DNA of 64,000 nucleotides from Dioscorea cayenensis subsp. rotundata (lineage: Eukaryota > Streptophyta > Magnoliopsida > Dioscoreales > Dioscoreaceae). Made by a program: the position numbers and the translations under genes. Below the pieces are notes generated by a model. It made no database searches. It saw only the letters and a program-made list of their open reading frames with translations, and had not been told where the DNA came from. Of this stretch, positions 14,894 to 59,355 are shown piece after piece. The stretch is from NCBI RefSeq assembly GCF_009730915.1, contig NC_052489.1, forward strand, positions 4,739,622 through 4,803,621. Direction: 5' to 3'. The number at the start of each line of letters is the position of its first letter. The first letter of the stretch is position 1.

Positions 14894-17160
14894 ATCAAAA
14901 GGATGTTAACATTTGCATCCCTGTCAAACTAATTATTTCATATGCAGCCCTGAGATAGGAGTTTTACTGTTTTAGAAGTGATTAAAATTTTTATAAGGGT
15001 ATTGAAGAAAATTTCCAGTTTGATTAAATTTTTAATTGAACTTTATATCTAAATGATTTTAATTATGATCAACCAAACAACACAAACTTGTCATATGAAC
15101 CAATTTTTCTAATATTGAATTTAATCATTTTAACAAATATATTTATTAATTGATTTTAAAAAAATACTGGTATAAATAAATGTATATTACTAATTATTAA
15201 AATACTATTTTACTTTTAAAGTATTAATTTAATTAGTTTTACCATCTCATATAAAAGTTTTTTCACTAACCAACTTTCCAAAAAAAAAAAATTTAACACT
15301 TATTTTTATTTTTATTTTTTTCATAAGTTATTTGCCAGGTCATGCGCATGAAGTGGGAATTGATCGTGTACCCTCACCCAGTAACATAGGCTTGAGTAGC
15401 AAATCTAAATCTACACTCAGAACCCATTACTATCATTTTAAAGTTCCACACCAAATATTTTATAATGGAGCTAATGTGGTTGGACACGGACCCTTGAACA
15501 AATATACTTTTTATGACTAGCTAAATCACTTAATGCACTCTAGGGGGTATATTATATATATATAATTAAAATATTATTCATTATAATTGATACAAAAAAT
15601 GCTATTTTTATTTTTATTTTTTTTAAAATTCTATCTCATATTATTTAAAATGAATTAAATAACATTAATATATTAAATAAATTTGATGTTGAGTGATAAT
15701 AAATAATATGGCTAGTCAAACATAAATCCTCAAATATTTTTGTTTTTAAACTTTATATATAGATTTTTTTTATTGAACTTATCAGTACATAATTATCAAT
15801 ATTTAGGATATAAAAATAAAAATAAAAATAAAAATAAAATTCTAAAAAATGCAATTGCTATAGCAAAATCTCTATCAATTATCTCCAAGTTTATGTTTTA
15901 TTTTCATTATAGGGATTTATCGTTTTTTTCCTTTTTTTTATATCTAATTTAATTTTTTTAAATTTTTGTGTGATTATTTATTGTGTAAAAGTATTTATAT
16001 TTGTTGAATGATTGTTAGATATTTGTTAAATGTTTATTTCATTATGAAAATTATTGTGAAAAAATGTTATATATTTGTGATTAATTGTTATGAAAATTTG
16101 AATTATTCATTAGATTATTTGTTGAATAATTGTTGTATTTAATAATTAACTTATATATGAATTTGTTTAAAGTCATTTTTTAATTGCAGTATTTGATAAT
16201 TTAGTGTTTAACCAGTTAAGTTAATCACTAATATGTAGATATGATAGCGGTTTTACACATAAACCAATTTTTTTTTAAATAAATATATATTTTATATTTT
16301 TAAAATATTGATTATTATAATCTCAAGTTTGAATTAATAGAATTATTTAATATTTAAAAAGATTTTAAAATTTAAATTTAGCACTCTTTATTTTTAGTTC
16401 TACTTCCGCCATTGCTCTAGTACTTTTTTCACTTGTAAATAAATAATTATAATTTATTTTTTATATTATTTTAAAAACAACTATATTTTACAAAACATGT
16501 GAAAAATATTGATGTGAAGTACTTATTTTAAGATATTACAAGGCTAAAGAAAAATTAAGCAGTAAAATAAATACTTTGTCATTAATCAATGAAAAGTTTA
16601 AATTAGTTACTGTATCCCTTACTAATTCCTAATAATCTTATATATATATATATATATAAGATTTTTGATCTATTTTATTTAATAATTAACATGTCTAATT
16701 TAATGATAAAAATTTTAAAACTATATTTTATTTTTATTGATTTTTAAATTTTTAAAATTTTACTACAGCACAACTTATTTTAGAGGAGTAGAATTTGAGA
16801 CAACTATTATATTTGCCTTTAAATTTAATTTTTAAGAAACAAATATAACATATATGTCTATATCTAAAAATATTTGCTTCTAATGGACATATATTTTTTA
16901 ATTATAATAATTGAAAGGTAGATAGTGTAGAGAAGTATATTAATAAATAGCATCTTTTATAAGTTATACATGCAATTAACCATATACGCAGAGGCACATT
17001 TATATTTTTTTTTTCTCTATTTTTATCTTATGTTTCATGAAACAAGTACATAAAACTAACACATTGTTTTACCTCTTAATTTTATATTTATTCCAATCAT
17101 CAACAACAATGATACAAAAAAACATTCAATATTATTTAAAATTTTTTGTTTTAATAAAAT
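14894..17160. other. AT-rich intergenic region
   Basis: Over 2 kb of very AT-rich DNA with (AAATA)n at about 15812-15838 and (TA)n at about 16640-16658. Short open frames occur but none resembles a protein family. The last stretch may include the 5' leader of the LINE that follows. Confidence 0.5.
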
Positions 17161-18300
17161 ATGGACAAATTGGACAATGAAGTAGGAAACTTAGGCTTTT
17201 TCTTTCTTGACGCGCACACTAAGATCGCTTCCATGGTGACAGGAAGAGGTCGAGGTCGAAAGCTCGTGATCCAAGGAGACTTTGCAGTAGCTAGAGGTGT
17301 GGGAATGTCGACGAACAAATTGAAGCATAATCATGATGTTGTGATTGAATTGGAGGAGGTGGAAGACCAAGCTATTGATGGAGATCCAACCCTAGCTCCG
17401 GAGATTACTATTGGTAATGACAATTTCAATTTGAATGAATCTGCAGTCATTGATGGATTTAGATCAATTAATGTGAACGGATCTATGAGAATGAATCAGA
17501 AAAGTGTGGCTAGACCTTGGAATGCTCTATTTGCTGATAATCTGATCAGGGAGAAGAGTAATGAGCTGAAATTCATTTCTCCATCAGTGTTTAATGGTCA
17601 AAGAGTTGTTCGATTTTATTCAAGCGAGGTAGTTCAGGAGGAATATCAATGGAGGAATGTGTTAGTAGGCTGTGTCTATGGCATGCAACCAAGGTTGGAA
17701 AGATTTAATGCTTTCATACAAGCTCGATGGAAGACATATGGAGTAGTCACAGTCTCTAAAGTAAATGCAGAGCTATTTTTCATTAAATTTGATGATGCCG
17801 AGGGGTGTGAACAAGCACTGAGGAATGGACAAATGGAATACACTTTTGCTAATCACCCCATTATACTGCGAAAATGGCAACCAAGGATGAGTATGGAAAG
17901 TTCAGTGTGTGTTCTCCCCATTTGAATTCAACTCCCAGGTTTACCTTGGGAATTTTGGTATGTAAGTATGTTAAGCAAGATTGGCAATGTTTGTGGGAAA
18001 CCTCTTTATTGTGATAAATGCACTATCTCAAAGGTGAAGTTGGGTTTTGCTAGAATTCTTGTTGAAATTGATGCATCTGGGGATTTCCCTGAAATGATTG
18101 AGTTGATTGATGAAAAAGGTATGTTTTTTTAGCAAAAAGTAATATATGAATGGAGGCCTGCTGTCTGTTCAAATTGCAGGAAATTTGGACACATATTGAA
18201 GGATTGCAAGGCTGCTCAACCAGGGAAGGTAGTGTGGAAAGTAAAGAATAAAGCTGATGGGGATAACCATGTGATTCCAATACACAGATTCAGGAAGAAG
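17161..18300 (+). pseudogene. LINE ORF1 (DUF4283 and CCHC zinc knuckle), broken
   Basis: RNA-binding nucleocapsid-like protein of a plant LINE. The first 254 codons are open and include a Gly-Arg-rich patch (GRGRGRK) and the DUF4283 core. TGA then stands where the domain continues as IQLPGLPWEFW, and TAG interrupts before the zinc knuckle near 18160-18210. No function is retained as read. Confidence 0.75.
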
Positions 18301-18717
18301 TACATGAACATAATAAAATAGAAATGAGGATTGGTAATACTAAAAATCTGCATGTTAAAGACCCTATTGGAGAAAAATGGAAGGAAATTGTTAAAGGTAA
18401 GGCAGTAAGCTGCAAAAATAACATAAATAATGGTGTTGTTCACAGGTCATGTCAAGTTCAGATTGATAGAAATGGAGGGGAGGATATGGATGGTAGAAAG
18501 CAGAATATACCAGACTTGGATCCAATAGGTAGTCAGTTGTTATTTTCTCAAGCCATACTCCAAAGAGAAGATAATGTTTGTAGGCCAAGTTGCAGTAATA
18601 GCTTTGGCATTCTGGAACAAATTGCAATGAGAACAGAACATCCTATACATATTGAGAAAAAACATGCCAATGATGGTAGGAGGGGCAGGAATGTCAGCCT
18701 ACTAAAATAGTTGAAGG

Positions 18718-21230
18718 ATGTTTTATCGTGGAATATTAGAGGACTATATAGTCCTCTAAAGCAATCGAAGGTGAGAACTATGATTGCTAGATATAGGGTT
18801 ATTGTTATGGGAATCCTTGAAACAAGAGTAAGAGAGGTAAATATGAATGAAATATGGAAAAACCTTCGTTTGAATTAGTGGATGATGGAGCACAATTATT
18901 CACTAAATGAACTAGGAAGGATATGGATACTATATGATACTAATCGTATTAGTTTGCAAGTCATTGAAATGAAATCACAATTCATTCACTGTCAAATTAC
19001 TTGGGAAAATAAAATTTTCCTATGGACTTGTGTGTAAGAGTCTTATAACCCAGAGATAAGAAGGGAGATGTGGAGTGAGATGTCAAGGATTGGAAACAAT
19101 CTAACACTTCCATGGCTTATACAGGGGGACTTTAATGCAATGAGCTGCAATGAAGATAGAATTGGGGGTACTTCTGTTAATGAAGCAACAGCTTGTGAGT
19201 TCCAAGATTGGATTTTGGGATTACAATTAATAGAAGTTCATAGTAGTGGCCCAAAATTTACTTGGACCAATTTTCAAGAGGGTGATAACAGGATATATAG
19301 AAAATAAGATTGGTGCTTTGCAAACCAGTCTTTCTATTCCAAGAAGACATAACCGGCATGTAATGTTCTAAATTGCAGTACATCTGATCATTGTGGTTTG
19401 TTGGTTGCTCTAAAGAAACCAATGGAAAAAGTGAAAACATCCTTCATATTCTTTAATATATATGTGGTGTGAGCACCCACTTTTCTACATTATTGTTGAG
19501 AAGATTTGGAATATGCCAATCAAAGGCAGTAACATGTATAAAGTTTATCAGAGATTGAAAATATTAAAGGCTGAGCTGAGGTACCTAAACAGGAAAGATT
19601 TTGATAATGTTTCAGAGAAAGTATCTAAATGCAGGCATGAGTTGGAGGGAATTAAAAGCAAGCTACTATATGACCCTTTTAATATGGATTTACAGAATGA
19701 GGAAACAAATATGATCTCCCATTTGTAGAAATTATTAAAATGGGAAGAAAGCCTTCTAAAACAAAAGACAAGGTGCCAATGGGTCCAAGCAGGTGACAAA
19801 AACTCTAAATTCTTTTTCAGAATGATGCAGCAATGGAAGGCAAAAAATAAAATTGGGCAAAGGAAACAAATATCTAGGCCTCCCTCTAATTTCCACAAAG
19901 TTGACTAAGGAACATTGCCAAGGTAATCGCCAAAATTACTGCCCAAATTTCATCTTGGATTGCAAAGATATTGTCATATGCAGGAAGACTACAGTTGATT
20001 AATTTAGTGTTATCAAGTTTGAATATCTATCAGTGCTTTGTATTTATACTGCCAAAAGTGGTTATTTCTGAAGTAGAAAGGATATGCAGGAATTTTTCGC
20101 AGCATGGATCTGAGGACTCTAACATAAGGGGCTTAGTAGCATGGGATCTGGTTTGTCAGCAGAAAATAGTTGGAGGCTTAGGTGTGAAACCTTTGAAACT
20201 CTGGAATTATACAACATAAATCAAACACATATGGGAGATAATTCAGGTAAAACCAACACATTGGGCTATCTGGGTGAACACCATCAAATTGAAGAAACTG
20301 AGCTTTTGGGGGATTATTAAAACAACTGATAGTAGCTGGAACTGGATGAATCTGCTCAAACTGAGAAAGATTGTAAAACCATTAATTAGTTATAATTAAG
20401 CTTGGGGATGAGAAAAAAATTCTCCCTTTGGTTTGATCCATGCATGGTGTAATGGGTCCTCTATAACTGATCTATTACCTGATGTTAGTTTTCTTGAGCC
20501 TTACATGGACAAACAGGCAATTGTTTGTAAATACTAGAATAATGATGCTTGGTAACTACCTGCTAGATGGAATCCTACAATAGCGAGAATCAATGATTTT
20601 CTTAATGAATATCATGAAGTCAATGGAAATAAGTTGGATTGTATAACATGGAAAGTGGAAAAGAATGGGAAGTATAACACTAAAAGCATGTTGAATTGTT
20701 AAATTCAACCTTACATGAATGTAAGTTGGACAAAATTGTTGTGGTCATCAACAAATTTACCCAGACACTCATTTGTTCTATGGCTTGCACTGCAAAAAAG
20801 ACTTCTCACAAAAGACAAACTGATGAAGTGGAAGGTGATTGACTCAGATGTATGTGTGTTGTGTAATTTAGCTAGTGAACATGTTGAACATTTATTCTTT
20901 GATTGCCCATTCTCAAGTTCAGTTTGGAAGAAAGTATTATATGTTGTCAATGTATCAAGGAGACAATTTTCATGGGAACCAGAATTCAATTGGTTTACTC
21001 AGAAAGCTATGGGGAAATCTTTATTAGCAAGGGTAAGAAGGACTGCAATGGTGGCCAGTGTGTATACAATTTGAAAATCTAGAAATTGCTTGGTCTTTCA
21101 GGAGAAATGTGTTAATGCTGAGGAAGTGTTTGGGCAGATTAGGAAAATTGTGGTGCTCAAATACCTAAATCAATTTTCCAATGAGAAAGAGGGTAGTGAA
21201 AGAGTCCTGCAAAAATGGTTTATGGGGTAG
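18718..21230 (+). pseudogene. LINE ORF2 remnant (endonuclease, deleted RT, zf-RVT)
   Basis: Would have encoded endonuclease plus reverse transcriptase. The endonuclease part has several stops (for example near 18878, 19035 and 19305). The RT palm is absent through an internal deletion. The post-RT and zf-RVT parts are in fragments, the longest open pieces being 19971-20219 and 20715-21074. Confidence 0.75.
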
Positions 21231-23589: not shown

Positions 23590-23800
23590 AAAATGGCATT
23601 TAGTAATAATAAATTAAATTAATTATTAATTAAATAATTGGATTAATTAATTTAAATAATAACCATTAATGGAATCTTATCAACCAATTAATTCACAGGA
23701 AATTGGTTGATAAGATTTCATTAATGGTTATTAATTAAATTAATTAATTATTTAATTAATAATTAATTTAATTTATTATTACTAATTATAAAATGCAATA
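23590..23800. repeat. Long AT-rich inverted repeat (foldback)
   Basis: Two arms of about 90-100 bases flank a loop of roughly 11 bases (23690-23700). The inner arms read ATCTTATCAACCAATT and AATTGGTTGATAAGAT, and the outer arms end in TTTAGTAATAATAAATT and AATTTATTATTACTAA. Only a couple of substitutions and one short gap separate them. It could be a foldback MITE and would form a strong RNA hairpin if transcribed. Confidence 0.75.
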
Positions 23801-23932
23801 TTTTTAAATATAATAATAAATAATATAAATAAATTAAATGCTGAAGTTAATAATTAATAAATATTTAATAATTAATATATCATAACAAATTAATATATAT
23901 TAAAGTAAGGAGGTAATCAAACAAATTAACAC

Positions 23933-24752
23933 ATGTTTGCAAGATCTTCTTCGGACATAAAGGCTTATATTGAAAAGGATGGGGATTTTATTGACTAGGG
24001 AGAGTTTCAGATAGATGGAAGATCTTCAAGGAATGGTCCTGTAAATCTGGTTGAGGTTTACGCAGAGGCATTAAATGCTGGTTCTGCTGAAGAATCTTTA
24101 CAAGTTATGAGAGAGAAGGATCCAAAGTCTTTCTTTCTTCAATACCATAACATGAGGGCTAATGCAGACCGTTTATTCGCACCACCAATTTGTGTTTTCA
24201 AATCTAAATGGGATTGTTCTTCTTTCATTGTTAATATAGGTATTTCACAGTGGTTACTTGATAATTTTATTGTTAATGACGCTGCACGGCCGGAGAGTTT
24301 AATATTGGAAGATCCAAGTAGGGTAGGTAAAATAGCTTGGGCTAGATTATTAGGACCACATAACTGTATATATCTGTGGACACATGGACTTTAATGCAAA
24401 TGTCTTTAGGAATGATGTCATGTACAATGTGATCAATGATGTGGCACCTCAATATCTTCGGTTGAAGTATTGGAAAGAATTGATTGGTGCATTGAGAAAC
24501 TGGCAGTCAAACTGCAAGTACTGGAAGCTTGTCTAAGTTACTGGTGGTGTTCTTGCGATTATATTATGCAATCCTAGATTTGATTCCAGCTATTCTGAAT
24601 TTCTTGAGAGACCTGAACATATTTCATTCCGACAATGGACACATCAAAATGCGGTTTCGAGTTCGTTTTCTCTCCAATGTTCAGGCAGTTGGGTGATATA
24701 TCCGGTTCTACATCGGTGTCTATTTAATTTACAGATTGCTATTATCGGGTAA
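23933..24752 (+). pseudogene. Geminivirus Rep-like pseudogene, 5'-truncated
   Basis: Replication-initiator relative that in viruses nicks the origin and acts as an SF3 helicase. The remnant begins near the third rolling-circle motif, seen as AYIEKDG with the nicking tyrosine kept. An oligomerisation-region-like stretch follows, then a Walker A-like segment (EDPSRVGKIAW, Lys kept, neighbouring residues changed), GPHN, a Walker B-like YNVINDV and an ILCNP motif-C segment with Asn kept. Breaks: in-frame TAG at 23996-23998, a frameshift near 24370, and TAA at 24534-24536; the frame closes at 24750-24752. The first two rolling-circle motifs and any AC4 frame are absent. As read it cannot give a working protein. 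Confidence 0.85.
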
Positions 24753-24776
24753 ATCTCTCTGTCATCCGGACAATAG

Positions 24777-25181
24777 ATGGATTCCCGAACCGGCATCCTC
24801 AATACTATGGCAAAAGCTGAGAGTGGAGTGTATGTTTGGGACCTGGTTAATCCTCTTTATTTCCGGTTGCTTGAACATCACCAACGACTGTTTGGTAGAC
24901 CGTATGATATTGTAGTTGTTTAAATATAATTCAACTATAATCTGAGAAGAGCTCTTCAGATCCATAAGTGCCGGTTAACTTTCCCTTTTTTTACTACACT
25001 TTGGCCCAGTGGATGTGGTTTTGTCCATGTAATTCGCAATCATGTATTGTCGTTTCTAAATAGTCTTGGTGTAATTTCAGTCAATAATGTAATACGCGTT
25101 GTGTCTAGCTTTGTTAGCAGATTAAACCAATATGTACTCGACGTGGAGACGGATTTTAATGTTCAATTCAATGTTTATTAA
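24777..25181 (+). pseudogene. Geminivirus REn (AC3)-like pseudogene
   Basis: Begins with an ATG (MDSRTG), 25 bases past the end of the Rep frame, and spans 134 codons plus stop, the usual REn length. Recognisable segments are NPLYFRLL, FNYNLRRAL and NSLGVISVNNVIR. Two stops (TAA at 24921-24923 and 24927-24929) interrupt it after 48 codons. In viruses REn boosts replication through contacts with Rep and host PCNA. No TrAP (AC2) frame could be recognised in the overlapping region. Confidence 0.82.
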
Positions 25182-25962
25182 TATATTTCTTTCAAGTATC
25201 TTGTATTGTATTTATCTTCATATGTATTGTCCATATGAATACTTATCTTTATATATAAATGGATGCTTTCTTTTATAGTTCTCTTACTGGTATTTATTCA
25301 ATGTCTTGTAATTTATAGTTTTTTACAACATCAATTGTATTTTACATACATATATATTTATTTGTACTAAATTTGTATTTTTTTCCTACATGTTTTCATG
25401 GTTGTTTTTTATTATTTATATTGTTTGTGCTTTCTTTCTAATCTTTTTCTTATTCAACACAAGATATATCATGGTTTATGTATACAGGGCTTACTTGTTA
25501 TTCTTCTAACCTACTTCTTTAGGTCATGGTTTCCATTATCACATCAATAATACGTACTTTTATAATTATATAATATGTACCAACTTTTTATTCTTTTAAT
25601 ATACATTATAGCCTTTATAGGTTGTATTTGTTTTTATAGGTTGTTTTTCTTGTTTCCAACCGTTGGTTTTTCCTTTCTTTATGTTAGGGATCTTTACTGC
25701 TCACCGATCTGGGAGACACACACTGAGGTTGGGATTTCGCCATGTGGACGTAGATGCGATGAGGGCTTCGGGTTCTCATGGATCAAGGTGGGAGACAGCG
25801 GTAGGACAGAAGGACGGATGCGGGGACGGGGGACCCATGAGCACCACTCCATCTCATGCACTCCGCAGATGGCACCAACTTTTATTTAAATGCCGGCTGC
25901 TTATTGGTCCACGTGGCAGTGGGCCTGGGGGGCGGCCATGAGTAACCCTATTCTCAAAATAC
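25182..25962. other. AT-rich spacer and GC-rich island
   Basis: The first 500 bases are very AT-rich with nothing recognisable. From about 25690 to 25945 composition switches to GC-rich and includes CCACGTGG-like and GGGGGGCGGCCAT motifs plus a TTTATTTAAATG box. Two overlapping short frames cross it without family resemblance. The last 8 bases (25955-25962, CAAAATAC) are the left target duplication of the hAT element. Confidence 0.5.
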
Positions 25963-28900
25963 CAATGTTTTTAGAACCTGACCGGCATAACAGGAAACCA
26001 GCCGGCAGTCAGGTCCAGTTCTCTAGAACTGGTTGACCGGGAGTCAACCCGGTCAAACTCGGCGAACCGCCCGGTTTGACCAGAACCGGGTTGACCCCAG
26101 TTCTAAAGCTTTGCTTTAACTTTAGAAAAAAGCCAAACAGAGCAGCTATTCTCTTTTCTCTAGCTCAAGCTTCGACTATGAGTCTGTGAGGGTTTCGCTT
26201 GGATCTAGACCATCTAGTGAGGGTTTCGCTGTGAGCCTGTGATTCATCATCCATCTCTTTTGCTTTTGTTGTTTTCCCTTTTTTTAGTTGATTTCTTGTT
26301 TGGAGTACTCTTGTGGGATTTTGTGCTAAAGAACAAGAGGATGAAAGTTGAATGTTCAGGTTTTTAACCTGTTTTCCAAGGTATTTGATTGGGTTTCTTC
26401 TTGAGGATTAATCTGTGTTAAAGGCTGGGTGTTGGGCTTGTTGGTTGTGTTGTATGGTGTTTTGATGATTGTTAGTGAATTGATTGAGAAAATAAGATTT
26501 TTAGTTAATGTCATTCTATTTCTCAAAGTTCAAAGATGCTGATTTGTTTCATATTTGCCCATAGAAATTGTTATTTGAAATTTTTATAGATCTCAGTGCT
26601 ATTATTTTGATGATTTACTCTTTTGTTCACATTTTTCTTTTCAGTTTGCAGAAGCAGTTGGGTATGGAGATCTTTTTATAAGTTTTGTCATTGTTTAGCT
26701 GCCTGCCTTGGTATCAATTTTACTTGGTCTTGATCTTTTTGTCCAGATCTAAAGGTATGATGGTTATTAGATTGTTGTGAGTTTAATTTATTTAGGAACT
26801 TCATTGGAATGAGGATTGCTATTAGTTCTCTACTATCTTATGCAGTCTTTGTTGCCGGCACTGTCACTTTTATTTGCAGGTATGTTAAAATGGTAGTTGA
26901 TATTAGGACTTGACAATGATGATGATGACTAGGTTTTGCTAGCAATCAATTTTCATAGACTAAAAGTTGCTTTGATGGTCTATGTATATCTTATGCTTTG
27001 ATGGTTTGGGCGTGCTAACTAGTACACCATCAATTATCATTAGTTTTTAGTGGTCTTCCATGATTATTTTAATCTTAATAATCAAGTGAAACTAATGTAC
27101 CTAAAACGTATTGTTATCAAAATTCAGTAATGCAAGCATATAACACTTCATACTCAATTTGTTTATTTTTTAATATTTAATCATTTCAAACTATTATCTC
27201 AATTTTTGGGATTGTATTATTATTTTAAAAAAGAAATTAACTGAAGTCTTAGATTTCTGGTCCAATGTTATGTGATGGTTTGGTGGTGAATTTTGAGTTA
27301 ATTTCTCATGATGATGATGATGATTATTATAAAAACAAATGTTGTCTTGTGATGGTGATTATGGGGATTGGGTGAGTATATAGATTGTGATCATTTCTTA
27401 ATTAAGCTCATTTTTAATTTTTTATGGTAATTGTACCAAAATTGCTATTTTTAGTGGTGTGTTTAAATTGTGATTAGGTTATGAGTCATGATCAATTTTG
27501 TAGTTCATTTATTAATTATTATGATAATTGTACCAAAATTTTTGGAGAGTGTTTAGATGTTGATTCTTTTTCCATTTGTGTTGTGGATTGCAAATAGATG
27601 GAAACTATTAGGTCTCAATCAACATCGTCAAATGAAGTTGAATCTAATGAACAAACTTCTTCTGGTGTACATATTCGACAAAAAAAAAAGATATTGCATG
27701 GAGATATGTAACTGAGGGGCAAAATTCTCAAGGGAGAAGGATCTTCATTTGTAATTTTTTGCCTAAAGCAAAATGCGGGTGGGGGAATCAACCGAATGAA
27801 ACAACATCTTGCTAGATCAAAAGGCAATGTTGATTCATGCAAAAAAGTCCCTTCTGATGTTCATTTTTTTATTCAAGGATTATTACAAGAAAATGTTCAA
27901 AAATCCAAAGAAAAAAAAGGAGTTTATGATGATACCAATCTTTATGGAGAGTCTATGCATGAATGTCAAGGTGATGATGTTTTGGTTGGTAAAAGTAGTA
28001 CATGTGTGGAGATATCCTCTAAAGGGAAACGAAAATCTAGTTGTGGCATTGGGTCTTATTTTAAACATGGAGTTGGCGATCCTACCCAACCAACTATAAA
28101 AGCTTCTATGCAAAGTAAAGAGAGGTGGCATGATACGGATATGGCAATTGCTATGTGGCTTTATGATGCATGTATACCATTAAATGTTGTCAATTCTCCA
28201 TTCTATCAAACTGCAATTAGCAAGATAGCAAGTATGGGCCATGGGTACACAGGTCCTACATATCATGCATTGAGGGTCAATTTGTTGAGAGATTGTAAGC
28301 AACAAGTGAAATTAATTATTGATGATTTTCGAAAGACTTGGGTTGAAACATGATGCACTATTATGGGTGATGGATGGATAGATAATAGGCAGAGGTCATT
28401 GATCAATTTTTTGGTATATTCTCCTAAAGGAATATCATTCATTAAATCAGTTGATGCTTCAAGTTTTATTACGGATGCTCAGACATTATGTAATCTTTTT
28501 TCTTAAATCATTGAGATGGTTGGTCCTCAAAATGTAGTACATGTGGTGACAGATAATAGAGCTAATTATAAGGTTGTTGGAAAGAAGATTGCAAAGAAAT
28601 ATTCTGATATATATTGGTCTCCATGTGCTGCTCATTGCATAAACTTAATTATTAAAGACATTGCTGAAATGACAACTGTTGAGAGTTTGGTAGTTCTTGC
28701 TTCAAAGATTACAGTGTTCATTTATAATTATAAGTGGATTTTGAATTGGTTGCGAAAACAACCAAAGTAGACAGAAGTTGTTCATCCTGGAGCTACTCGT
28801 TTTGCCACAACTTTTATTGCATTGAAGAGTTTATATGACCACAAAGATTACTTACAATCATTGGTTGTTTGTTCAGATTAAAAAAATTCCTCAAAGTGCA

Positions 28901-30667
28901 AAAAGGAAAAGAAGTTAAGCAAATTGTTTTGGATGAAAATTTTTGGAAGAATTGCTTGATAGTTGTGAAGATTATGGGTCCATTGATACGTTTGTTGAGA
29001 ATTTGTGATTCCGATGAGAAGCCGACAATGGGATATATATATATATATATGATGGGATGTATAGGGCTTGCAAGGGAATTAAAGACTTATTCAAAAATAA
29101 GAAGCACTTGTATAAGCCTTATACTTCCATTATCAAAGATCGATAGAATAGGACCTTGTGCACGGGGATACATGTTTTAGCATATTGGTTGAATCCGGCA
29201 TTTCAATTTAGTGAGCAAAACTTGTGCCAAAAGTTGGAGGTTCAACGTGGTATACTTGATGTGATTGAGCGGCAAACTTTGTTTAAATCAAGTGATTTAA
29301 TAGAAGAGATGAGAATATTTAGAGAAAGGCAAAAGACTTTTAGTCGGGCACTTGCTTTAACTACTTGCAAAACTACTACTGCTGGTAGGAATAAATCTGA
29401 TTTTTTTTTAAATTTAGTTATATGATTGTTTACTAATATAGTTTTGTAATTTTTTCATAGATGAGTGGTGGAAATTCTTTGGTTGTGATGTGCCTTATTT
29501 GCAAAAATTAGCTATTAGAGTTCTTAGTCAAACTGCTTCTTCTTCTGGTTGTGAACGTAATTGGAGTGTGTTTGAACATATACATACCAAAAAAAGGAAT
29601 AGATTGGAGCATCAAAGACTTAATGACTTGGTGTATGTTCACTATAATCTACGTTTGCAACATATGTATGACATTTATGGTTTTAAACTTTTAATTTGTC
29701 AAATACTCTTTACATGCAAATTATTTTTATTCAATATTTTGCTTTTTTTTTTAAAGGTCATCTTCTAAAAATAGATCTTACGATCCAGTGGATTATGAAT
29801 CAATTGACAAAATTGAATTTTGGGTCGTGGAAGAAGAACCAGAAGGAGAACTTAACTATAATGAATTAGAGAACATGTTGGAGGAGCAACCTAGAGGTAG
29901 TGAGCAATCAACTAAGCTATCTAAAGGTTAAGTTTCTAACTCTTTTTTAACTATTAATTATATTTAATGTCAATGCTTCATATTCATATTCATAACTATT
30001 AATTCATGAAATGAATTTTTAGGTGATGATGAACAAGATGATGTGATAATCACCGAAGATAGTGACCATGAAATAGTCGGTTTTCAAGGAATGACTAGCA
30101 ATAATTTAGATGAAGAAGATTGGCTACCATCCCCTCCAAGAAATTAGATGAAGATGTTATGTTTTTTATTTGCTAAACCTTTTATCTTTCATGTATGCTT
30201 GTTGTCGTGAGTCTTGTGACCTTGTTAGATTTTCTTTCATGTTGCCACAAGTCTTGTGACAATGTTAAATTTTCTTTTCATGTTGTTGTGATGTTGTTGT
30301 GACTTTGTTAAAATATTTTCATGTTTTTGATACCATGTTAAATTTTCATTTATATTGTGACCTTGTTAAATTTTCTTTCTTTGTAATATTGTTAGATTTT
30401 CGTACTATTATTTAGATGTTCTTCTTTAACATTGTTTTTGTCATTTGACATTATGTGATGAATAAGGTGTAGTTTTTTGTCATTAGATTAAATTGGACAT
30501 GGAATATATATGTGAGTTTAGAATTTTGAAGAATATATAAATATATATATATATATATAATTATTACATCATCCGGTTCGACCAAATCGGGTCATCCGGT
30601 CCAACCGATTGACCCATGATCCGGTTGTTTGGCCGGTTCACTTCCCGGTCCGGTTTTGAAAACATTG
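25963..30667 (+). mobile_element. hAT DNA transposon, 4.7 kb, with 8-bp target duplication
   Basis: The left terminus CAATGTTTTTAGAACC and right terminus GGTTTTGAAAACATTG are imperfect terminal inverted repeats that continue into CCGG-rich subterminal sequence. The flanks are identical, CAAAATAC at 25955-25962 and 30668-30675: the 8-bp duplication of the hAT superfamily. Subterminal AACCGG/GGTTGACC repeats occupy 25980-26100 and 30570-30650. The interior carries a broken transposase gene. The element is structurally complete but probably non-autonomous. Confidence 0.92.
27598..30147 (+). pseudogene. hAT transposase (BED finger, DUF659, hATC), broken
   Basis: Would catalyse excision and reinsertion of hAT elements. 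An N-terminal frame from 27598 shifts in a ten-A run near 27680. A BED-finger-like C...H part (NRMKQHLARSKGNVDSC) and a DUF659-type region (28130-28520, TDMAIAMWLYDACIPLNVVNSPFY) follow. VVHVVTDNRANY with WSPCAAHCINLI is the catalytic-core section. The C-terminal dimerisation segment at 29490-29660 reads LSQTASSSGCERNWSVFEHIHTKKRN in parts. Two C-terminal exons end at 30147 (WLPSPPRN). In-frame stops occur at about 28351, 28504 and 28768, with a further frame break near 28880. Introns around 29404-29460 and 29935-30022 look genuine. Confidence 0.85.
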
Positions 30668-32615: not shown

Positions 32616-35600
32616 CTAAACACCGTCCTTGTCTTGAAGATCACTTTCACTCATGATACCAATTTTACTCCTTAGATACATGAATGTTGCTGTTTTCAGG
32701 GGTTTTGTGAATATATCTGCTGATTGTTCTTCTGTTTTACAATGCTGCAACTTTACATCACCTTTTTCAACCAGCTCTCTCAAGAAATGAAACCTTACAT
32801 GAATATGTTTGGATCTTCCATGAAACACTGGATTCTTGGAAAGTTTTATGGCTGAGCTATTATCACAATATAGAATAGTCGCTTCCTTTTGTTCTGCTTT
32901 CATATGCGCTAGAATCCTTTGCAACCAAACAGCTTGGCAGGCACCTGATGTTGCTGCAACATACTCTGCTTCTGTTGAAGACAATGTCACGATCGGCTGC
33001 TTCTTTGAACTCCAAGCTATTGCTCCTGTGCCAAACATGAAAATATAACCAGTAGTACTTTTTCTGTCATCAGGATTCCCCGCAAAATCATTGTCTACAT
33101 AATCTGTTAATTGACCTTGAACACCTTTTCTGTAAAATATGCCGAAATCTTGTGTACCCTTCAAATACCTTAAGATCTTTTTGGCTGCTATCAAGTGTTG
33201 TTCTTGCGGATTTTCCAAGAAACGACTAACCAAACTTACACTGTGCATAATATCTGGTCTCGTAGCTGTGACGTACATCAAACTTCCAATTATTTGCTTG
33301 AACATAATGTTGTTTACCTCTTGACCACCAGGATTTTTCATCAACTTGGTTTCTTTATCCATTGGAGTAATTGTTGAATTACATGCTGTCATTTTGAACC
33401 TATCAAGTATCTCAGCAACATATTTTTTTTGACAAACAAAAATGCCATCACCAGTTTGTGTAACCTCGAGGCCTAGGAAATGATGTAACATACCAAGATC
33501 TGTCATATCAAATTCCAACTTCATGGATAATTTAAATTGTTTCAACAAATCAATATCATCACTAGTATAGAGAAGATCGTCCACGTATAAGCATACTATC
33601 AATATCTTCCCATCAACTTGCTTAACATAGAGAGTGTGTTCATATGGACATCTAATAAAGCCTTCCTTCAAAAAATATGTATCAATCCGACAATACCAAG
33701 CTCTAGGAGCTTGTTTCAATCCATAAAGGGCTTTCTTAAGCTTATAGACCTTATGCTCCTGTCCAGCTTCAATAAAACCAAGTGGTTGCTCAACAAATAC
33801 CCGTTCATTTAGTTCACCATGCAGGAAAGCTGATTTTACATCAAGTTGATACACTGGCCAATCATTTTTTGCTGCTACTGCCAAAGCTGTTCTTACTGTA
33901 TCTAGCCGCACTACAAGTGCAAACACCTCTGTATAATCAATTCCAGGTTCCTGTATGTATCCTTTAACCACTAGTCGAGCCTTATGTTTGTCTACTTCTC
34001 CATTTGCCTTTCTCTTAGTTTTGTAAACCCATTTGACACCTATAGCTTTTTCACCATCTGGTAAATCCACTAGCTCCCACGTGTTATTCTTCTCTATGGC
34101 CTATATCTCTTCTTCCATTGCTATTTGCCATTTTTCCTCTTTTACAGCACTTTCATAATTAACTGGATCATAATCTGCAAAAAGGGCCAACTGTGAGACA
34201 GTTTCAGTAATCCTCCATCCATACTGGTGTACGCCTTTGCCGTTAAGGTCTTGAACTTGTTTCACCTCCAGATTGATCTTGTGTTGAATGTTGTGATGTG
34301 TTGGACGTTACTGGTGTCTCAAAAACAGTTTCCTCTGAACCATCATCATCATCAATGACTGCAATTGATTCTCTGTGCTGTTCTTGTGGAGAATTCCAAG
34401 GCCAAAACTCAATTTCTTTGAAAAACACATCCCTGCTGATAATGATTTTCTTTGAAATAGGATTATATAATTTATAAGCTTTAGATTCTTCACTCACTCC
34501 TAACAGAACACACTTCAATGCCTTGTCATCAAGCTTGGTTCTTCTTTGTTCAGGGATTAGTGAATAAGCAATACAACCAAATACACGGAAATAATGAATT
34601 GCAGGTACCTTTCCATTCCATAGTTCTTCAGGTGTTCTTTCTACAGCACTGGTTGGACTTCTGTTCATCACATGAATGCACCAAGCCGCAGCTTCAGGCC
34701 AGAATGTTCTTGGCATGCCACTCATCTTCAAAACACTTCTAACCAAACCAAGAACTGTTCGATTCTTTCGTTCACAAACTCCATTTTGCTGTGGAGAATA
34801 TGGAACTGTTAGCTGCCTTTTGATCCCATGATCCTCACAAAAATTGCTGAACTGCTGGGAAGTAAATTCTCCACCTCTATCAGACCTAATCATCTGAATA
34901 GTTCTGCCAGTTTCTTTCTCGACCTCTAGCTTGAATTTTTTTAACACATCTAATGCGTCTAACTTGGTCTGTAAAAAATAAATCCATGTCTTTCTGCTGT
35001 AATCATCAACAAACAAGATGAAATACCTCTTTCCCCCATTAGATGTTGGAGTGATAGGTCCACAAATATCTGTGTGGATCAATTCCAGAATATGTTGTGC
35101 TCTCTAGTGACTAGTTTTAGGAAAAGATTCTCTGTGTTGTTTACTGAGAATGCAGTCCTCACAGGCTTCTGTTGGCAAATCAATTGATGGTAACCCTTTT
35201 ACCAAATGTTTATGTTGCAATTTCTGTAGGCCTCCAAAGTGCAGATGACATTATCTATAATGCCACAACCAAGCCAACTCTTGTTGCTTAGCAGTCAAAC
35301 AAGTGAGCTTTATATTCTGCAAATGCAAAGGAAACATCCTGTTCCTAGTCATTGGAGCACTTGCTATCAAATCAAGACTTGAATTTTTGATTTGACAAAC
35401 ACCATCCTTTATCACAACTTCAAAACCTTTTTCTTGCAGCTGCCCCACACTAAGCAGATTTGTCTTCAAATCTGGGACAAAGAGCACATCAGAAATATAC
35501 TGATTTTGACCAACCTTGGTCTGAATTTTTCACTTTTTCCTTTTTCCTTTGATCGCTACAAGTGAATTGTCACCAAATTTAACTGATGATCGAAAAAAAG

Positions 35601-36625
35601 CGTCATCTAGCTCGGAAAAATGCCTCACGATCACCACACATATGATTACTGCATCCCGTATCAAGATACCATAAATCCTTGGCATTTGCTTCCTTGTTAT
35701 GACACACCATTAGTAAAGAAACTTCTGCTTCCTCCTTTTCTCTTTGCTCAGCAAAATTGGACTTCACTTGCCTATAAAATCGTGCCTTGCATTCAGATTT
35801 GTAGTGTCCATATCGATGACACTTGAAACACTGGATATGAGCCTTTGATTTTCCTTTAATACTTTCTCCTTTCTGCTTGTCTTGAAATTGCAGCTTCTTT
35901 TGTCCTTCGTTCACCTTCTCGGCTCTTTTCCCCTTCCAAGTTTGAAAGCTTCTTGCACTAGGCTTTGTTGTAACTTGTAAAGCCTGCATCTATGCCTGCA
36001 ACAACTGCTCCTCCTTCTCCTGTTTCTTAACTTTTTGCTCATGTATTTGCAGTGAATTTTGAAGTTCATCTAAGGTCATTTCATCAAGATCATGAGATTC
36101 TTCAATGGCAGTGACAATATAGTTATACCTTGTTGTCATAGACCTTAGAACTTTTTCAATTATAGTGACATTCTTCATTTTTTCACCATGAATTCGGAGC
36201 TTATTTGCTATAACCATTGTCCTGGAGAAGTATTCTGAAACAGATTCCTCTAGTTTCATTTGTAAAGTCTCGAATTCAGCTCTGAGACTTTGCAGTTGTT
36301 GCCGTCGAGCCCTCGCATTCCCTTGATACTTCTTCTTCAGTGAATCCCAAATTTGCTTTGATGTATCTGTACATAGGATAGTCTCCAAAACAGCCCGATC
36401 AATCGCTTGGAAAAGATAGTTCTTTGCTTTTAAATCTTTCAACCGCAAGCAATCATGCTCAGCTTTCTGTGCATCAGTTGCACCTTCTGGTAGCATTAAA
36501 ACTCCAGACTCCACCACTGTCCAATATTCTTTGGACCGAAGAAAATTCTCCATGAGCATACTCCAATGGTCGTAATGACCATCAAATCGTGGGATTGAAG
36601 GTTGAACAAAATTATCATTGGCCAT
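32616..36625 (-). pseudogene. Copia gag-pol polyprotein, interrupted
   Basis: Gag starts with MANDNFVQPSIPRFDG at 36625 and carries the zinc knuckle CFKCHRYGHYKSEC near 35830. Protease shows DTGCSNHM near 35640. A GAG-pre-integrase segment lies at 35251-35487. Integrase (35082-34243) has IHTDICGPI, SDRGGEF and PYSPQQNGVCERKN. RT (34070 onward) has YVDDLLYT, and RNase H ends in SSTEAEY and DNSSAIKLSKNPVFHGRSKHIH. Breaks on the minus strand: TAG near 35990, a frameshift near 35610, TGA near 35534, TAA near 35249, TAG near 35105 and TAG near 34102. RT and RNase H (484 codons) are uninterrupted. Confidence 0.9.
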
Positions 36626-36678
36626 TGATGATTGTTTTGATGTTTGGAAAACTAGATCGTAGACTCTCTGATACCAAA

Positions 36679-36867
36679 TGATATTCAAGAAGAAGCCTCA
36701 AAACTATCAATCTTTATTACTCACGAAGTTTTTAATCTATACAAATGATAAAATAAATCTAATTGTTGTAACAGATAACAGATCGTAACAACTAAAACAA
36801 TATTATTAAAACATAAAAGATACGATAGATACTAATCAAATCTAACTAATTATTAAATTTGCTAACA
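36679..36867 (-). repeat. Copia 5' LTR (minus-strand sense)
   Basis: 189 bp partner of 32384-32572, adjoining the initiator-tRNA primer-binding site (about 36664-36677). Confidence 0.95.
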
Positions 36868-44636: not shown

Positions 44637-44720
44637 GAAATTATGAAGTATTACAGGGTTATATGTGCATAAATACCCTCCTTCATTCAATCTGCTGCTT
44701 CGTATTATTCAAAACAAACC
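41778..44720. other. Intergenic region with microsatellites
   Basis: AT-rich spacer after DPM2. A 99-codon frame at 43590-43889 has no recognisable domain and ordinary composition, so I do not call it a gene. Microsatellites: (TA)n near 44070-44088 and 44311-44325, (AAT)n at 44519-44568, (CA)n at 44597-44619 and (TA)n at 44620-44637. The stretch from about 44640 would be the promoter and leader of the bL24c pseudogene before the LINE inserted. Confidence 0.5.
44519..44568. repeat. (AAT)n microsatellite
   Basis: About 50 bases of AAT units, followed 30 bases later by (CA)n and (TA)n runs. Confidence 0.9.
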
Positions 44721-44837
44721 AACGAGAAACCTCTGTCTCCCTGTCTGTCTCAAATTGGTTGCATTTTTAACATCAAAAACCGTTTTGCTTTCTTGTGTGT
44801 TGCTCTCTGTCTCCCTGTTTTCGTCTCCCCTCTTGCC

Positions 44838-46598
44838 ATGGCAAGCGGGGGCCAATCACCACCCCACCCCGTCCACCCTCCCGCCGGTCCTTCCTCTCCT
44901 CCTCCTCCCAAGAAATCTTGGGCTCAAATGGCCGCTGCTGCCACTCCTTACCTTAACAGCTCTCCTCTTCATAATGCTCTTCTTCTCCAAAAGCTTAAAG
45001 AGACCACAAACAACTTCGTTAAAATCAACAACGATATCCTTTCTAAAGCTCAGGGTCGGTTCCAGTTTGCTCTGTACGGGAAGCTCTTCGGCAAATCGCC
45101 TCCTTTCGAGAAAGTTCGCGAGTCTCTCCTTGAGAAATGGGCCAACGTTGGCGAGGTCTTCATCTCCGATCTTCCTAATGGCTTCCTTCTTATTCGCTGT
45201 TCTTCTCAGCATGTTATGCAATACCTTATCACTGAGGGACCCTGGTCCGTTAATGGTTCTATTCTGCAACTGTCTCCCTGGCGGCCTTTCTTTGAACCCT
45301 CTTTCTCCAAATTGCAGTCTGCCTCTATTTGGGTACAATTTCATAACCTTCCGGTAGAATTCTGGGATTTTGATGCTTTGAAACTTATTGCCGGTCAGCT
45401 TGGTACTCTCATTAAAGTTGATGATTTTACATCCACACTTGCTAGATCGAAGTTTGCCCGGGTTTGCATTGACATCGATTTATCTAAACCCCTTTGCCGT
45501 GGCTTTTGGTTGGGCGACGACTTCCATCGTGTTTTCGTGGTCGTCATGTATGAAAAATTACCCACTTTCTGTTACTCGTGCGGCCTTATCGGTCATGGTT
45601 CGAATAACTGTCCGGCTTCGCTCTCCACTGTGAAAGGTTCACCTCAGCCACCCTCTCTGGTTACCAGAGAGCAGGCGGTAGGGGGCGGCCCTGTTCAGGT
45701 GGACGAAGCAGGCAATCACGACTCTTCGACGTCCATCCCTCCTGCTCCGGTCACTGTTGAGGCTCCGAACTCCGTAGTTCCCGACTCTGATTTCGGACCT
45801 TGGCTCCTTGTCACTCGTCGGCGAGGCAGTGCTCGCGGTCGAGGAGGAGGCGTCCGCGTCAATCCCGAGACTAGCAGCACTGCTGCCGTGGTGAGTCCCG
45901 AGGATCGTGCGCCTCGGTCTTCAGTTTTTGGTGGGACACGTGGTGGCCGGTCTGGCCTCGGTCAGACTCATTCGCGTAATCCCAATATCACTTACTGTTC
46001 CCCCATTAACTCTGATGCGACTGCTCTGGAAACCATCCCCTCATCTCCCATTTCGACCGTTGATCCTTCTTCGGTTTCTCCGCCAACCGTTGATTTGCTT
46101 GGCAATACTCGTCCTCGAGATCTTTTGCCAACCCCACTTTCTCTTCCCAATTCCAATTCTGCCCTTTTGTCCGTTCCTCCTAGGCCTGACAAGCGGTGTC
46201 TTGTTCCTTCCGTTCAGAATCTTGGAAAATCCATCCCTTCCATTCGTTCAAACTCTCCTCCTCCCATCTTGCACTCATCCCTTCATACTCCCCCACACCG
46301 ACCCTCTCAGCCTGAGAGATCTCCGCATCTCCTCATTGTCGATCAGGTGTCCGCTGCTCTCAACGAAGAAATCATGGATGAGGACAGTGATGGTGACCCT
46401 GATGATGATATTGACTCTGACGATGATGGTGAATCCGACGATGATGGCATGTCTCAAGATGATGAACCAGAAGACGATATGACTCTTATTCAGTATCAGG
46501 CTGAAGTCCGGCGTGATGCCCTCATCAGGAAAAGCTCTCATTCTTCCTGCTCTTCTCCGAAGAAGGGAAGGATGGAGATGGACGTCGCTGGTCCTTGA
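44838..46598 (+). CDS. LINE ORF1 protein (DUF4283, CCHC zinc knuckle), intact
   Basis: 586-aa RNA-binding protein of the LINE. The first ATG is at 44838 (MASGGQSPPHPVHPP). The N-terminus is proline-rich. A DUF4283 domain covers about residues 60-215, including LITEGPWSVNGSILQLSPW and IWVQFHNLPVEFW, followed by the knuckle CYSCGLIGHGSNNC. The C-terminal half is low-complexity, rich in Ser, Pro and Arg-Gly, with a long Asp/Glu stretch near residues 515-555 and a basic end. It should coat LINE RNA in a ribonucleoprotein with ORF2p. No internal stop. Confidence 0.85.
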   Translation: MASGGQSPPHPVHPPAGPSSPPPPKKSWAQMAAAATPYLNSSPLHNALLLQKLKETTNNFVKINNDILSKAQGRFQFALYGKLFGKSPPFEKVRESLLEKWANVGEVFISDLPNGFLLIRCSSQHVMQYLITEGPWSVNGSILQLSPWRPFFEPSFSKLQSASIWVQFHNLPVEFWDFDALKLIAGQLGTLIKVDDFTSTLARSKFARVCIDIDLSKPLCRGFWLGDDFHRVFVVVMYEKLPTFCYSCGLIGHGSNNCPASLSTVKGSPQPPSLVTREQAVGGGPVQVDEAGNHDSSTSIPPAPVTVEAPNSVVPDSDFGPWLLVTRRRGSARGRGGGVRVNPETSSTAAVVSPEDRAPRSSVFGGTRGGRSGLGQTHSRNPNITYCSPINSDATALETIPSSPISTVDPSSVSPPTVDLLGNTRPRDLLPTPLSLPNSNSALLSVPPRPDKRCLVPSVQNLGKSIPSIRSNSPPPILHSSLHTPPHRPSQPERSPHLLIVDQVSAALNEEIMDEDSDGDPDDDIDSDDDGESDDDGMSQDDEPEDDMTLIQYQAEVRRDALIRKSSHSSCSSPKKGRMEMDVAGP

Positions 46599-46682
46599 CC
46601 CGGTTGTAGTTTCTCTGACTGTCCCTGTTCTTCTTTTTTTCCTTCCCGAAGTCTTGTCCTAATTCTCCATTATTGTTTTTTT

Positions 46683-49600
46683 ATGATTACTTTTAAAATC
46701 TTACGTTGGGCCGTAGGGGCTTCTCCGCGCCTCACACCCTTTGCAGCACATCTTCAAAAGCCATCCGTACTTACAAGCCTTCCCTGGTTTGCCTCGTGGA
46801 GACCAGAGCTAACTTTGAGCGCCTCGATCGCTTCCGTATCAAACTTTCCCCTTCGTGGGACTGGGCTGCTATTGAATCTCTGGGGTTTTTCAGCGGCATT
46901 TTTTTATTTTTTTGGAATAAGAGCATTGGTCATGTTTCCCTCTCATTGTTTCTCGTCAGTGCGTTGCATATCGTTGTTTCTTCCCCAAATCATACTAATT
47001 GTATCGTTTCCGTCGTTTACAACTCTAATTTTTCCCGTTATCAACGTTTTCTCTGGCACGAGCTTTCTAAAATTTCTCAACTCCATCTTCCTTGGCTTAT
47101 TATCGGTGATTTTAACGCTGTTCTTTCGAGGCAGGAGTTTAAGGGTGGTAACTTTTCTTATTATGACCGTAAAGCCCGCTTCTTCAAAGACTTCGTTGAT
47201 TTAAATAATCTCATTGATTTTAATTTCTCGGGTCCTCAGTTTACTTGGTGCAACAATCAACTTGGCCCTGCTCGTCGCTGGGCCAGGCTGGATTGTTACC
47301 TCGTTAATTTGGAATGGATCAATGTTTTTCGGTTTTATAAACTCCAACATCTTTGCCGTGCTTTCTCCGATCATTCTCCTATCCTTCTTAACATTAGCAT
47401 CCATTCTTATAGCAGACGGAAAATTTTTCATTTTAACAACTTTTGGCTTGATTTCTTAGGCTGTCGCGATGCTGTGGGTTCCGCTTGGAATTTTACACCT
47501 CAGGGGAATTCTATGCATGCCTTCTCTCATCTTCTCTCCCGCTCTCGTTTTTTCATTCGCAGATGGTGCCGGTCGGGTGTTAATAATATTGAATCCAATA
47601 TTCTTCAGGCGGAATCCGCTATCCAAGACTGTGAAAGCAACATCCATAACCCCATCTCTTGCTCTCAGCTCTCTGATTTGTATTCCAAACTAGAAGCCCT
47701 TCATAGACAAAGTAACACCAGATGGGCTCAACGGGCTCATATGTCTTGGCTTGCGGACGGAGATAAGAATTCTAAGTTCTTCCATTATATTAATCATTCC
47801 CGTACTCACTTTAATCTGATTCATCAGGTCTCGAATCAGGACGGTGTTGTCGTCTCTAATCAGTCGGACATCCTCCTTGCATTCAAAGATTTCTATGCTA
47901 AACTTTGGTCAGCTCCGTCGGATCATGATCACAACCTCACTGGCCTCATTCCTGATGATATTCCTACCCTCTCAAACGTTGACAACTCGCTTCTTATCCG
48001 TGAAGTTTCGAAGGAAGAGGTTTATCTCACCATTCTTGATTTGCCCTCCGGTAAGGCTTCTGGTCCCGACGGGTTTAATGTTGAGTTTTATCGAGCTTTT
48101 TGGCATATTATTGGCGATTCTCTCTTCTCTGCCGTCAAACATTTTTTCGATTTCTCTTCTCTCCCTCCTTCTTGGGGTAGAACTTCTATCGTTCTTATTC
48201 CCAAAATTGATTGTCCTAAAAAAGTCTCTGATTTCAGACCTATTTCTCTTGGCAATGTTTGTTTTAAAATCATCACTAAGCTCCTTGCCAATCGCTTAAA
48301 ACTTGTTATTTCTAAGCTTATTGGCTGTGAGCAAGTTGGCTTTATTCCTGGGCGTTGCTCCTTCGATAATATTATTGCCATTCAAGAGGTTGTTCACACT
48401 TTAGAGCATGATGTCAATGGCCCCTCTAGGATGATTGTTAAACTCAATATTGAAAAAGCTTACGACACTATCTCTTGGAATGCAATTCTTACCATTTTGA
48501 AAAAAATGAATTTTCATAACAATTGGATCTCTTGGATTTCCACATGTCTTAAGGCTTGTTCCTTCTCTATCATTGTCAATGGTGTTGCTTCTTCTTGGTT
48601 CTCTTCCTCTAGAGGTGTGCGCCAGGGTGATCCACTTTCTTCTTACCTCTTCATTCTGGTTTCTCAAGTCCTCACCAATCTTCTTAATTCTGATCTCAGA
48701 CGAGGCCTGATCCCTGGATTTAGCTCCAATCTTAGACACAACTTTAATCACCTTATGTACGCTGACGATCTTATTTTAATCACACATGCTTCTCGTTCAG
48801 CTGCTAGGAATATTGTGCGGTGTCTTAGGTTATATTCTCACATATCTGGTCAGCGGCCTAATTTTGAGAAGTCTCAGGTATATTTCCCTACTTGGTTTAA
48901 CTCCAGAGTGAGACGTAGCATTTGCTCTATCCTTAACTTGCACCTCGCATCGCTTTCCTATCGATATCTTGGGATCTTGATCTCTCCGAAAAAAAACTTA
49001 GAGTCTGCTACCTTCCATTCCTTGGTGGACAAGATTACTCGCTCCTGCAACCGATGGACTAATCTCTCCTTATCTTTAGCTGCCAAGGCTATCCTTATTA
49101 ACTCTTCTTTGCTCTTAATCCCTATCTATACCCCTTTCTGCTTTATCCTTTTGCCCCTGATCCCATTACCTCTGAGATCACTAAAATTGTTAGAAGATTT
49201 TTTTGGAGTAAAAATGGTAATCGAAATGGCATTCCTTATGTTGCTTGGTGTAATATCACTAAAGGTAAGTTTGAGGGGGGCCTTGGCATCCACGATCTCT
49301 CTATTGTTAGACATTCCCTCATGGCCAAACACATTTTCAAATATCTTAATGATGATAATGTTTTCTGGGTCGACATTCTTCGTTTCAAATATGGGCCTTT
49401 TAATTTCTGGCGTGATTCTGTCCCTCCCAAATGTTCGTGGTTCTTTAGAGGTCTTTGTCAGTCTGCTAATCAACTTAAACCTCATTGCAAAATCATCTCC
49501 GTGAACCCTTGGAATGCATCCTTCTTATGGGACCCTTGGTACTCTTGCACTCCTATCGCTTTAATGCCTACTTTTATTGATATGTCGAACAATTTAGATC

Positions 49601-59341: not shown

Positions 59342-59355
59342 CCTAAAGCAAGAAC

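What the first reader, a model, noticed from the sequence alone, without database searches (positions are those of the whole stretch)
23933..25181. Endogenous geminivirus Rep-REn block in a plant chromosome
Directly seen: a Rep-like frame (AYIEKDG, GPHN, ILCNP) followed 25 bases later by a 134-codon REn-like frame starting MDSRTG, same strand, natural viral order and near-natural spacing, both broken by stops and one frameshift. Known: geminivirus-derived sequences exist in some plant genomes, notably yams and tobacco. Inference: an old single integration of the complementary-sense half of a begomovirus-like genome. The N-terminal rolling-circle motifs, AC4, coat protein and origin are missing here. 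The small number of breaks suggests moderate age or past constraint.
Basis: partly seen in the sequence, partly recalled or inferred. Interest (0 to 1): 0.88.

Follow-up and report, generated by a model that had tools for sequence, protein, structure and literature searches.

The report
Broken geminivirus fossil in yam chromosome
A two-kilobase piece of an ancient plant virus sits, broken, in a yam chromosome; such fossils are already known in yams, but the places where this one and three others end hint at how the virus DNA got in.

Summary
Separate pieces match geminivirus Rep (Gemini_AL1_M, E 3e-16) and REn (Gemini_AL3, E 2.5e-7 and 6e-15) in viral order on one strand. The host is inferred to be white Guinea yam, Dioscorea cayenensis subsp. 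rotundata. The insert is longer than reported: 23938-25939, bounded by homology to a tandem array on contig C10, about 88% identical. Rep motif III is kept; the part of Rep before it is missing. The right part is viral non-coding DNA that stops in the origin stem, 5 nt short of Rep's nick site. The Rep piece has 160 matches in this genome, itself included; such yam elements were published in 2015 and 2020. This copy is dead: four premature stops, at least one frameshift, a 45-nt gap. Differences from C10 spread evenly over codon positions (33, 38, 37), so no constraint is visible. Less expected: of 17 loci taken as independent, three end at the nick (within 0-2 nt) and the window ends 5 nt short, all on the side of the nicked strand's Rep-bound 5' end. 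This was noticed after the fact in a small sample; it suggests entry as Rep-nicked strands.

The parts
23938..25939 (+). Endogenous geminivirus insert: Rep remnant, REn remnant, non-coding stretch to the origin stem
   Evidence: DNA homology to C10 tandem units (L009) stops at both of these positions
23939..24752 (+). Rep remnant from motif III on; two premature in-frame stops, a frameshift, a 45-nt gap; the stop at 24750-24752 is shared with the C10 unit and may be Rep's natural end
   Evidence: Pfam, tblastn of yam EGV proteins, alignment to C10
24777..25181 (+). REn remnant, 134 codons and stop, ATG kept, two premature stops
   Evidence: Gemini_AL3 in two pieces; 49.6% to an exogenous begomovirus REn
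25182..25939 (+). Viral non-coding DNA right of REn
   Evidence: 89% identical to C10 units; 25913-25939 encodes the leader of yam EGV protein P0004, 0 of 500 shuffles as good
25932..25939 (+). Arm of the origin stem; right edge of the insert, 5 nt short of the Rep nick
   Evidence: Comparison with the intact origin in C10

Best explanation
A dead endogenous geminivirus element of the kind known from yams (EGV), in the genome of Dioscorea cayenensis subsp. rotundata. Shown: the insert holds Rep from motif III on, REn, and the non-coding stretch up to the origin stem; both genes are broken; its nearest found copies are tandem units on C10 about 10-12% different, with no shared flank found. Inferred: in an ancient infection (or from an episome released from an integrated copy) a virion strand nicked by Rep at the origin was joined to host DNA at or near its Rep-bound 5' end (right edge 25939), while the other end was lost within Rep (left edge 23938). 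Inferred: the copy has since decayed without constraint for some millions of years and makes no working Rep or REn. If it does anything now, it would be as a source or target of small RNAs; not tested here.
For: Rep and REn domain matches in viral order. Edges 23938 and 25939 set by homology to C10. Host from contig lengths and protein identity. None of the window's 4 premature stops is shared with C10; even differences over codon positions (33/400, 38/397, 37/398) and a similar level in non-coding DNA (K2P Rep 0.090, REn 0.129, non-coding 0.117). For the route of entry: L011, L015/L020 and L017 end at the nick within 0-2 nt and the window 5 nt short, all on the REn side; flanks of window, L011, L017 and the L015 group unrelated; P 1.7e-5 for 34 edges, 4.9e-5 for 44; no other 11-nt target gathers more than two loci.
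Against: The edge pattern was noticed after the fact, rests on four loci, and the window itself misses the nick by 5 nt. Most loci do not end there: intact origin loops are present in fetched stretches L009, L010, L012, L013, L019, L022, L024, L029, L030 and L031. Only the REn-side edge fits; Rep-side edges are scattered, and one (L014) lies 7 nt past the nick on the other side. Many edges in diverged loci may be limits of alignment rather than real ends. The early Rep part alone shows a slight, non-significant third-position excess (7, 9, 14), so some divergence as live virus is not excluded. Expression and selection are published for other yam copies (PMC5014472).
Confidence: 0.85

Rival explanations
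1. Copy made inside the plant genome: the block was duplicated from an already integrated array (such as C10) by ectopic recombination or repair, without any new viral integration.
For: Even divergence over codon positions suggests most differences arose after integration. Segmental duplication of EGV loci does occur here: L015, L016 and L020 share flanks. Recent tandem duplication in C10: two units identical over 808 Rep and 402 REn sites.
Against: No homology to C10 beyond 23938 and 25939 and no shared premature stop; the right edge lies 5 nt from the nick, which duplication alone does not predict.
Confidence: 0.3
2. Edge clustering at the origin is an artefact: alignments stop at the conserved stem because the region beyond it is too diverged between EGV lineages, or a fragile origin hairpin breaks later.
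For: The region between the origin and Rep is poorly alignable in several loci. Stem-loops are prone to later breakage (general knowledge).
Against: In L011, L015, L020 and L017 the conserved loop itself is cut: the sequence leaves the virus at the nick, inside the loop, while loops in other copies, of other lineages too, are intact. No comparable cluster elsewhere in the unit.
Confidence: 0.3
3. Contamination or misassembly: DNA of an infecting virus wrongly joined to plant contigs.
For: No reads could be mapped here.
Against: Both genes are decayed; plant elements lie on both sides; many diverged copies occur on many contigs; integration of yam EGV1 was shown by FISH in D. alata (PMC5014472).
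Confidence: 0.02
4. Domesticated gene: the plant keeps this Rep or REn for a function, for example defence against geminiviruses.
For: Purifying selection and possible protein are published for other yam EGV Reps (PMC5014472).
Against: Four premature stops, a frameshift, a missing first part of Rep and no codon-position bias.
Confidence: 0.03

Closest known systems
Yam EGV1 and EGV2 (Filloux et al. 2015, PMC5014472; results section read)
   Same: Dioscorea host; Rep and REn without detectable coat protein or TrAP; non-coding stretch and origin stem; tandem arrays; broken and open copies side by side
   Different: This copy lacks the first part of Rep and the origin loop. The C10 unit is 2,438 bp against 2,642 bp reported for D. 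alata EGV1. REn is full length as in EGV1, not shortened as in EGV2.
Endogenous geminiviral sequences of other plants (Sharma et al. 2020, PMC7758297, results parts 1-2 of 4 and section 3.7 read; macadamia EGE, PMC8626973, results section read; Nicotiana GRD, PMC3095596, passages)
   Same: Multi-copy, mostly truncated or broken Rep-bearing inserts, often clustered; D. alata with 148 rep copies in three clusters
   Different: Other hosts and virus lineages; where the inserts end relative to the nick was not discussed in what I saw

Membership tests
Endogenous geminivirus (EGV) | Protein homology to geminivirus Rep and/or REn beyond chance | tested here: met
   (Pfam)
Endogenous geminivirus (EGV) | Embedded in plant chromosomal DNA | tested here: met
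   Plant gene and transposons on both sides in the assembly; chromosome-size contig. Joins not checked with reads
Endogenous geminivirus (EGV) | Decay or truncation relative to a live virus | tested here: met
   Stops, frameshift, gap, missing first part of Rep
Yam EGV1 | Unit with Rep, full-length REn and an origin stem-loop, no coat protein or TrAP | tested here: inconclusive
   Gene content and REn length fit; the loop is present in the C10 relatives but cut off here
Yam EGV1 | Groups with deposited EGV1 sequences in a tree | not testable with these tools
   The deposited records are not in the collections at hand
Genus Begomovirus (ancestor) | Rep and REn nearest to begomoviruses in a tree with the other geminivirus genera | tested here: inconclusive
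   One named exogenous relative found, a begomovirus REn at 49-50%; no tree built

The most novel reading that the evidence does not exclude
Geminivirus DNA repeatedly entered yam chromosomes as Rep-nicked virion strands whose Rep-bound 5' end became the junction with host DNA, so that EGV inserts record the replication step at which they integrated: several independent inserts end at the nick, on the same side.
Probability: 0.5. Interest if true: 0.6.

Novelty: new member of a known kind. Interest (0 to 1): 0.38.

Why it matters
As one locus it adds a decayed copy to a known yam family. It matters more as a lead: if a full survey confirms that independent yam EGV inserts end at the Rep nick on the 5' side, that would be sequence evidence for the proposed idea that Rep's nicking step sets how such DNA enters chromosomes. 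Practically, annotated yam genes such as P0004-P0006 are viral relics, and an association study for tuber yield and mosaic virus tolerance in white Guinea yam lists geminivirus-domain genes near its markers (PMC8607609, passages); such hits should be read with care.

Tried and rejected
Collections that gave nothing: viral contigs with the Rep piece, with two alignments and with an exogenous begomovirus REn; since the last also found nothing, these negatives carry no weight. Plasmids: no match to the Rep piece; whether that collection holds phytoplasma plasmids was not checked. PDB: one chance-level match. PHROGs: none. Rfam and tRNA: none in the window. No other EGV piece in the window better than chance (other hits had E 0.3 or worse).

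Edge survey, what was dropped or merged: of the 25 best rows I fetched stretches for all but three (C21, C5:10.05 Mb, C2:5.27 Mb), plus two stretches beside the C10 array. L015, L016 and L020 were merged because they share flanks. L022 and L026 were merged on position and edge pattern, not tested by flanks; L018 and L019 were merged with the C10 array by position. That leaves 17 loci with the window. L014 was first listed as ending 4 nt from the nick; reading the sequence showed no origin there, so it was not counted; another piece of it begins 7 nt past the nick on the Rep side and was not counted either. L022 ends 7 nt past the nick by alignment, but its loop is intact. L020 also has an inverted piece running through the origin. 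L018 had no hit.

Dating: 4 premature stops in 399 codons give 0.07 substitutions per site (95% 0.02-0.18); half the distance to C10 (K2P 0.107) is 0.054. With neutral rates of 6.5e-9 to 1.3e-8 per site per year (recalled, no call) the split from C10 is about 4-8 million years old; published bounds for yam EGVs are 1.4-27 million years.

Not done: mapping of reads or small RNAs, a tree, DNA searches of the flanks in the whole genome (tool not answering), structure prediction.

Full report
What was checked. The pieces of the reported block were searched apart. Pfam finds the end of the geminivirus Rep catalytic domain (below its cutoff), the Rep central domain (E 3.4e-16) and both parts of REn (E 2.5e-7 and 6.4e-15), all on the + strand in viral order.

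Host. The three proteins found for the Rep piece are uncharacterised proteins of Dioscorea cayenensis subsp. rotundata. A PPR gene in the window is identical to a protein on a 31,611,005-base contig; the next hit is Dioscorea zingiberensis at 81%. The window lies at C19:4739622-4803621 of a 584-Mb genome, whose contigs C14, C17 and C19 have the lengths of the contigs that carry P0004, P0005 and P0007. The host is therefore inferred to be white Guinea yam; the genome itself is unnamed.

Extent. Homology to a tandem array on C10 (L009) covers the window from 23938 to 25939 and stops at both ends. Independent support: 25913-25939 encodes the leader of the yam EGV protein P0004; 0 of 500 dinucleotide shuffles of the flank, and 0 of 500 shuffles done in two blocks, scored as well (best 39 against 45), and the best score in 1-23900 and in 30669-64000 was 32. 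The left edge lies in Rep just before motif III; the part of Rep before it was not found in the window.

State of the genes. Rep has two premature in-frame stops, a frameshift near 24369, a 45-nt gap relative to the C10 unit and a one-base length difference at 24654; the stop at 24750-24752 is shared with C10 and may be its natural end. REn keeps its ATG and end but has two premature stops. No coat-protein or TrAP family matched in the 7 pieces or the 10 frames. The C10 unit has its own length changes and stops elsewhere; none of the window's 4 premature stops is shared with it.

Copies. The Rep piece has 160 matches at E <= 0.001 in the genome, itself included; the tool scored 150 of 204 candidates, and several matches can belong to one locus. 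The C10 units, 2,438 bp apart, are the nearest found: about 88% by BLAST, 90.1% over 1,992 ungapped sites, K2P 0.107. Two C10 units are identical at 808 Rep and 402 REn sites but 9% different in the non-coding part, first differing at the equivalent of window 25315: a recent tandem duplication.

Constraint and age. Differences between window and C10 fall on codon positions 1, 2 and 3 as 33/400, 38/397 and 37/398 (chi-square p 0.82), and non-coding DNA differs to a similar degree. REn alone gives 16, 14, 13; early Rep alone 7, 9, 14 (p 0.27). The reading frame after 24654 is uncertain; leaving out 24537-24752 gives 28, 29, 34. This is what unconstrained decay gives; with about 108 changes the power is modest, and it does not contradict the selection published for other yam copies (PMC5014472). 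C-to-T differences relative to C10 are more frequent at CG (16/78) than at CHH sites (41/534; p 0.001), with CHG between (16/125; p 0.08), as expected of methylated DNA; direction was not polarised.

How it got in. In C10 the origin reads through a stem and the loop TAATATTAC; the window stops inside the stem, 5 nt before the nick (position of the nick in the loop recalled). I mapped the edges of 20 fetched stretches of the same genome against L009. Three further loci, on C16 (L011), C10 (L017) and C17 (L015 with duplicate L020), end at the nick within 0-2 nt, the extra bases being A's that the host may supply, all on the REn side, which is the 5' end of the nicked virion strand. The flanks of the window, L011, L017 and the L015 group are unrelated; L015, L016 and L020 share flanks and count once. 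Intact loops occur in L009, L010, L012, L013, L019, L022, L024, L029, L030 and L031. Taking 17 independent loci and 34 edges, four or more within 5 nt of the nick has probability 1.7e-5; with the 44 edges it is 4.9e-5. No other 11-nt target in the unit gathers more than two loci. The pattern was noticed after the fact, the window itself misses the nick by 5 nt, and most loci do not end there, so I hold it as a likely reading, not shown. That Rep mediates integration of such viruses is an existing proposal (PMC7493932, passages, citing Krupovic and Forterre 2015, which I did not see).

What is known. Yam EGV1 and EGV2 with Rep and REn but no detectable coat protein or TrAP, tandem arrays and transcripts were described in 2015 (PMC5014472, results section); 148 rep copies and three clusters in D. 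alata in 2020 (PMC7758297). The window holds a further copy of a known kind. In the paper searches made and the text I saw, I met no report that yam inserts end at the nick; 'nick' has zero occurrences in PMC5014472, PMC7758297 and PMC8626973 and in PMC3095596 and PMC3198968. Most subscription papers, among them the original tobacco work, are not in the library.

Neighbourhood. A hAT transposon with inverted ends and a perfect 8-bp duplication lies 23 bp right of the viral edge. The DNA right of the hAT shows no convincing similarity to the non-coding viral stretch.

Noticed in passing
window 25963-30667 (+): hAT transposon: 23-nt inverted ends (87% complementary), perfect 8-bp target duplication CAAAATAC, hAT dimerisation domain (52 bits), 23 bp right of the viral edge.
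   Followed up: yes
window 23590-23810: Long near-perfect hairpin just left of the viral insert, folding z-score -17.5, arms mapped; looks like a fold-back MITE.
   Followed up: partly
window 32619-36697 (-), 17158-21071 (+), 44673-50427 (+), 59347-61492 (+): Copia-type retrotransposon, two LINE-like elements and a MULE-type element around the insert.
   Followed up: no
L019 (C10:19552501-19557500), minus strand 1093, 1716, 2347, 2986: Four exact origin loops only about 630 bp apart beside the C10 array: a tandem run of short origin-bearing units.
   Followed up: no
L015, L016, L020 (C17 at 14.34, 14.29 and 10.51 Mb): One EGV insertion with its flanks copied to three places on the same contig.
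   Followed up: partly
P0004-P0006, D. c. rotundata annotation: EGV Rep fragments are annotated as uncharacterised yam genes; an association study lists geminivirus-domain genes near its markers (PMC8607609, passages).
   Followed up: partly
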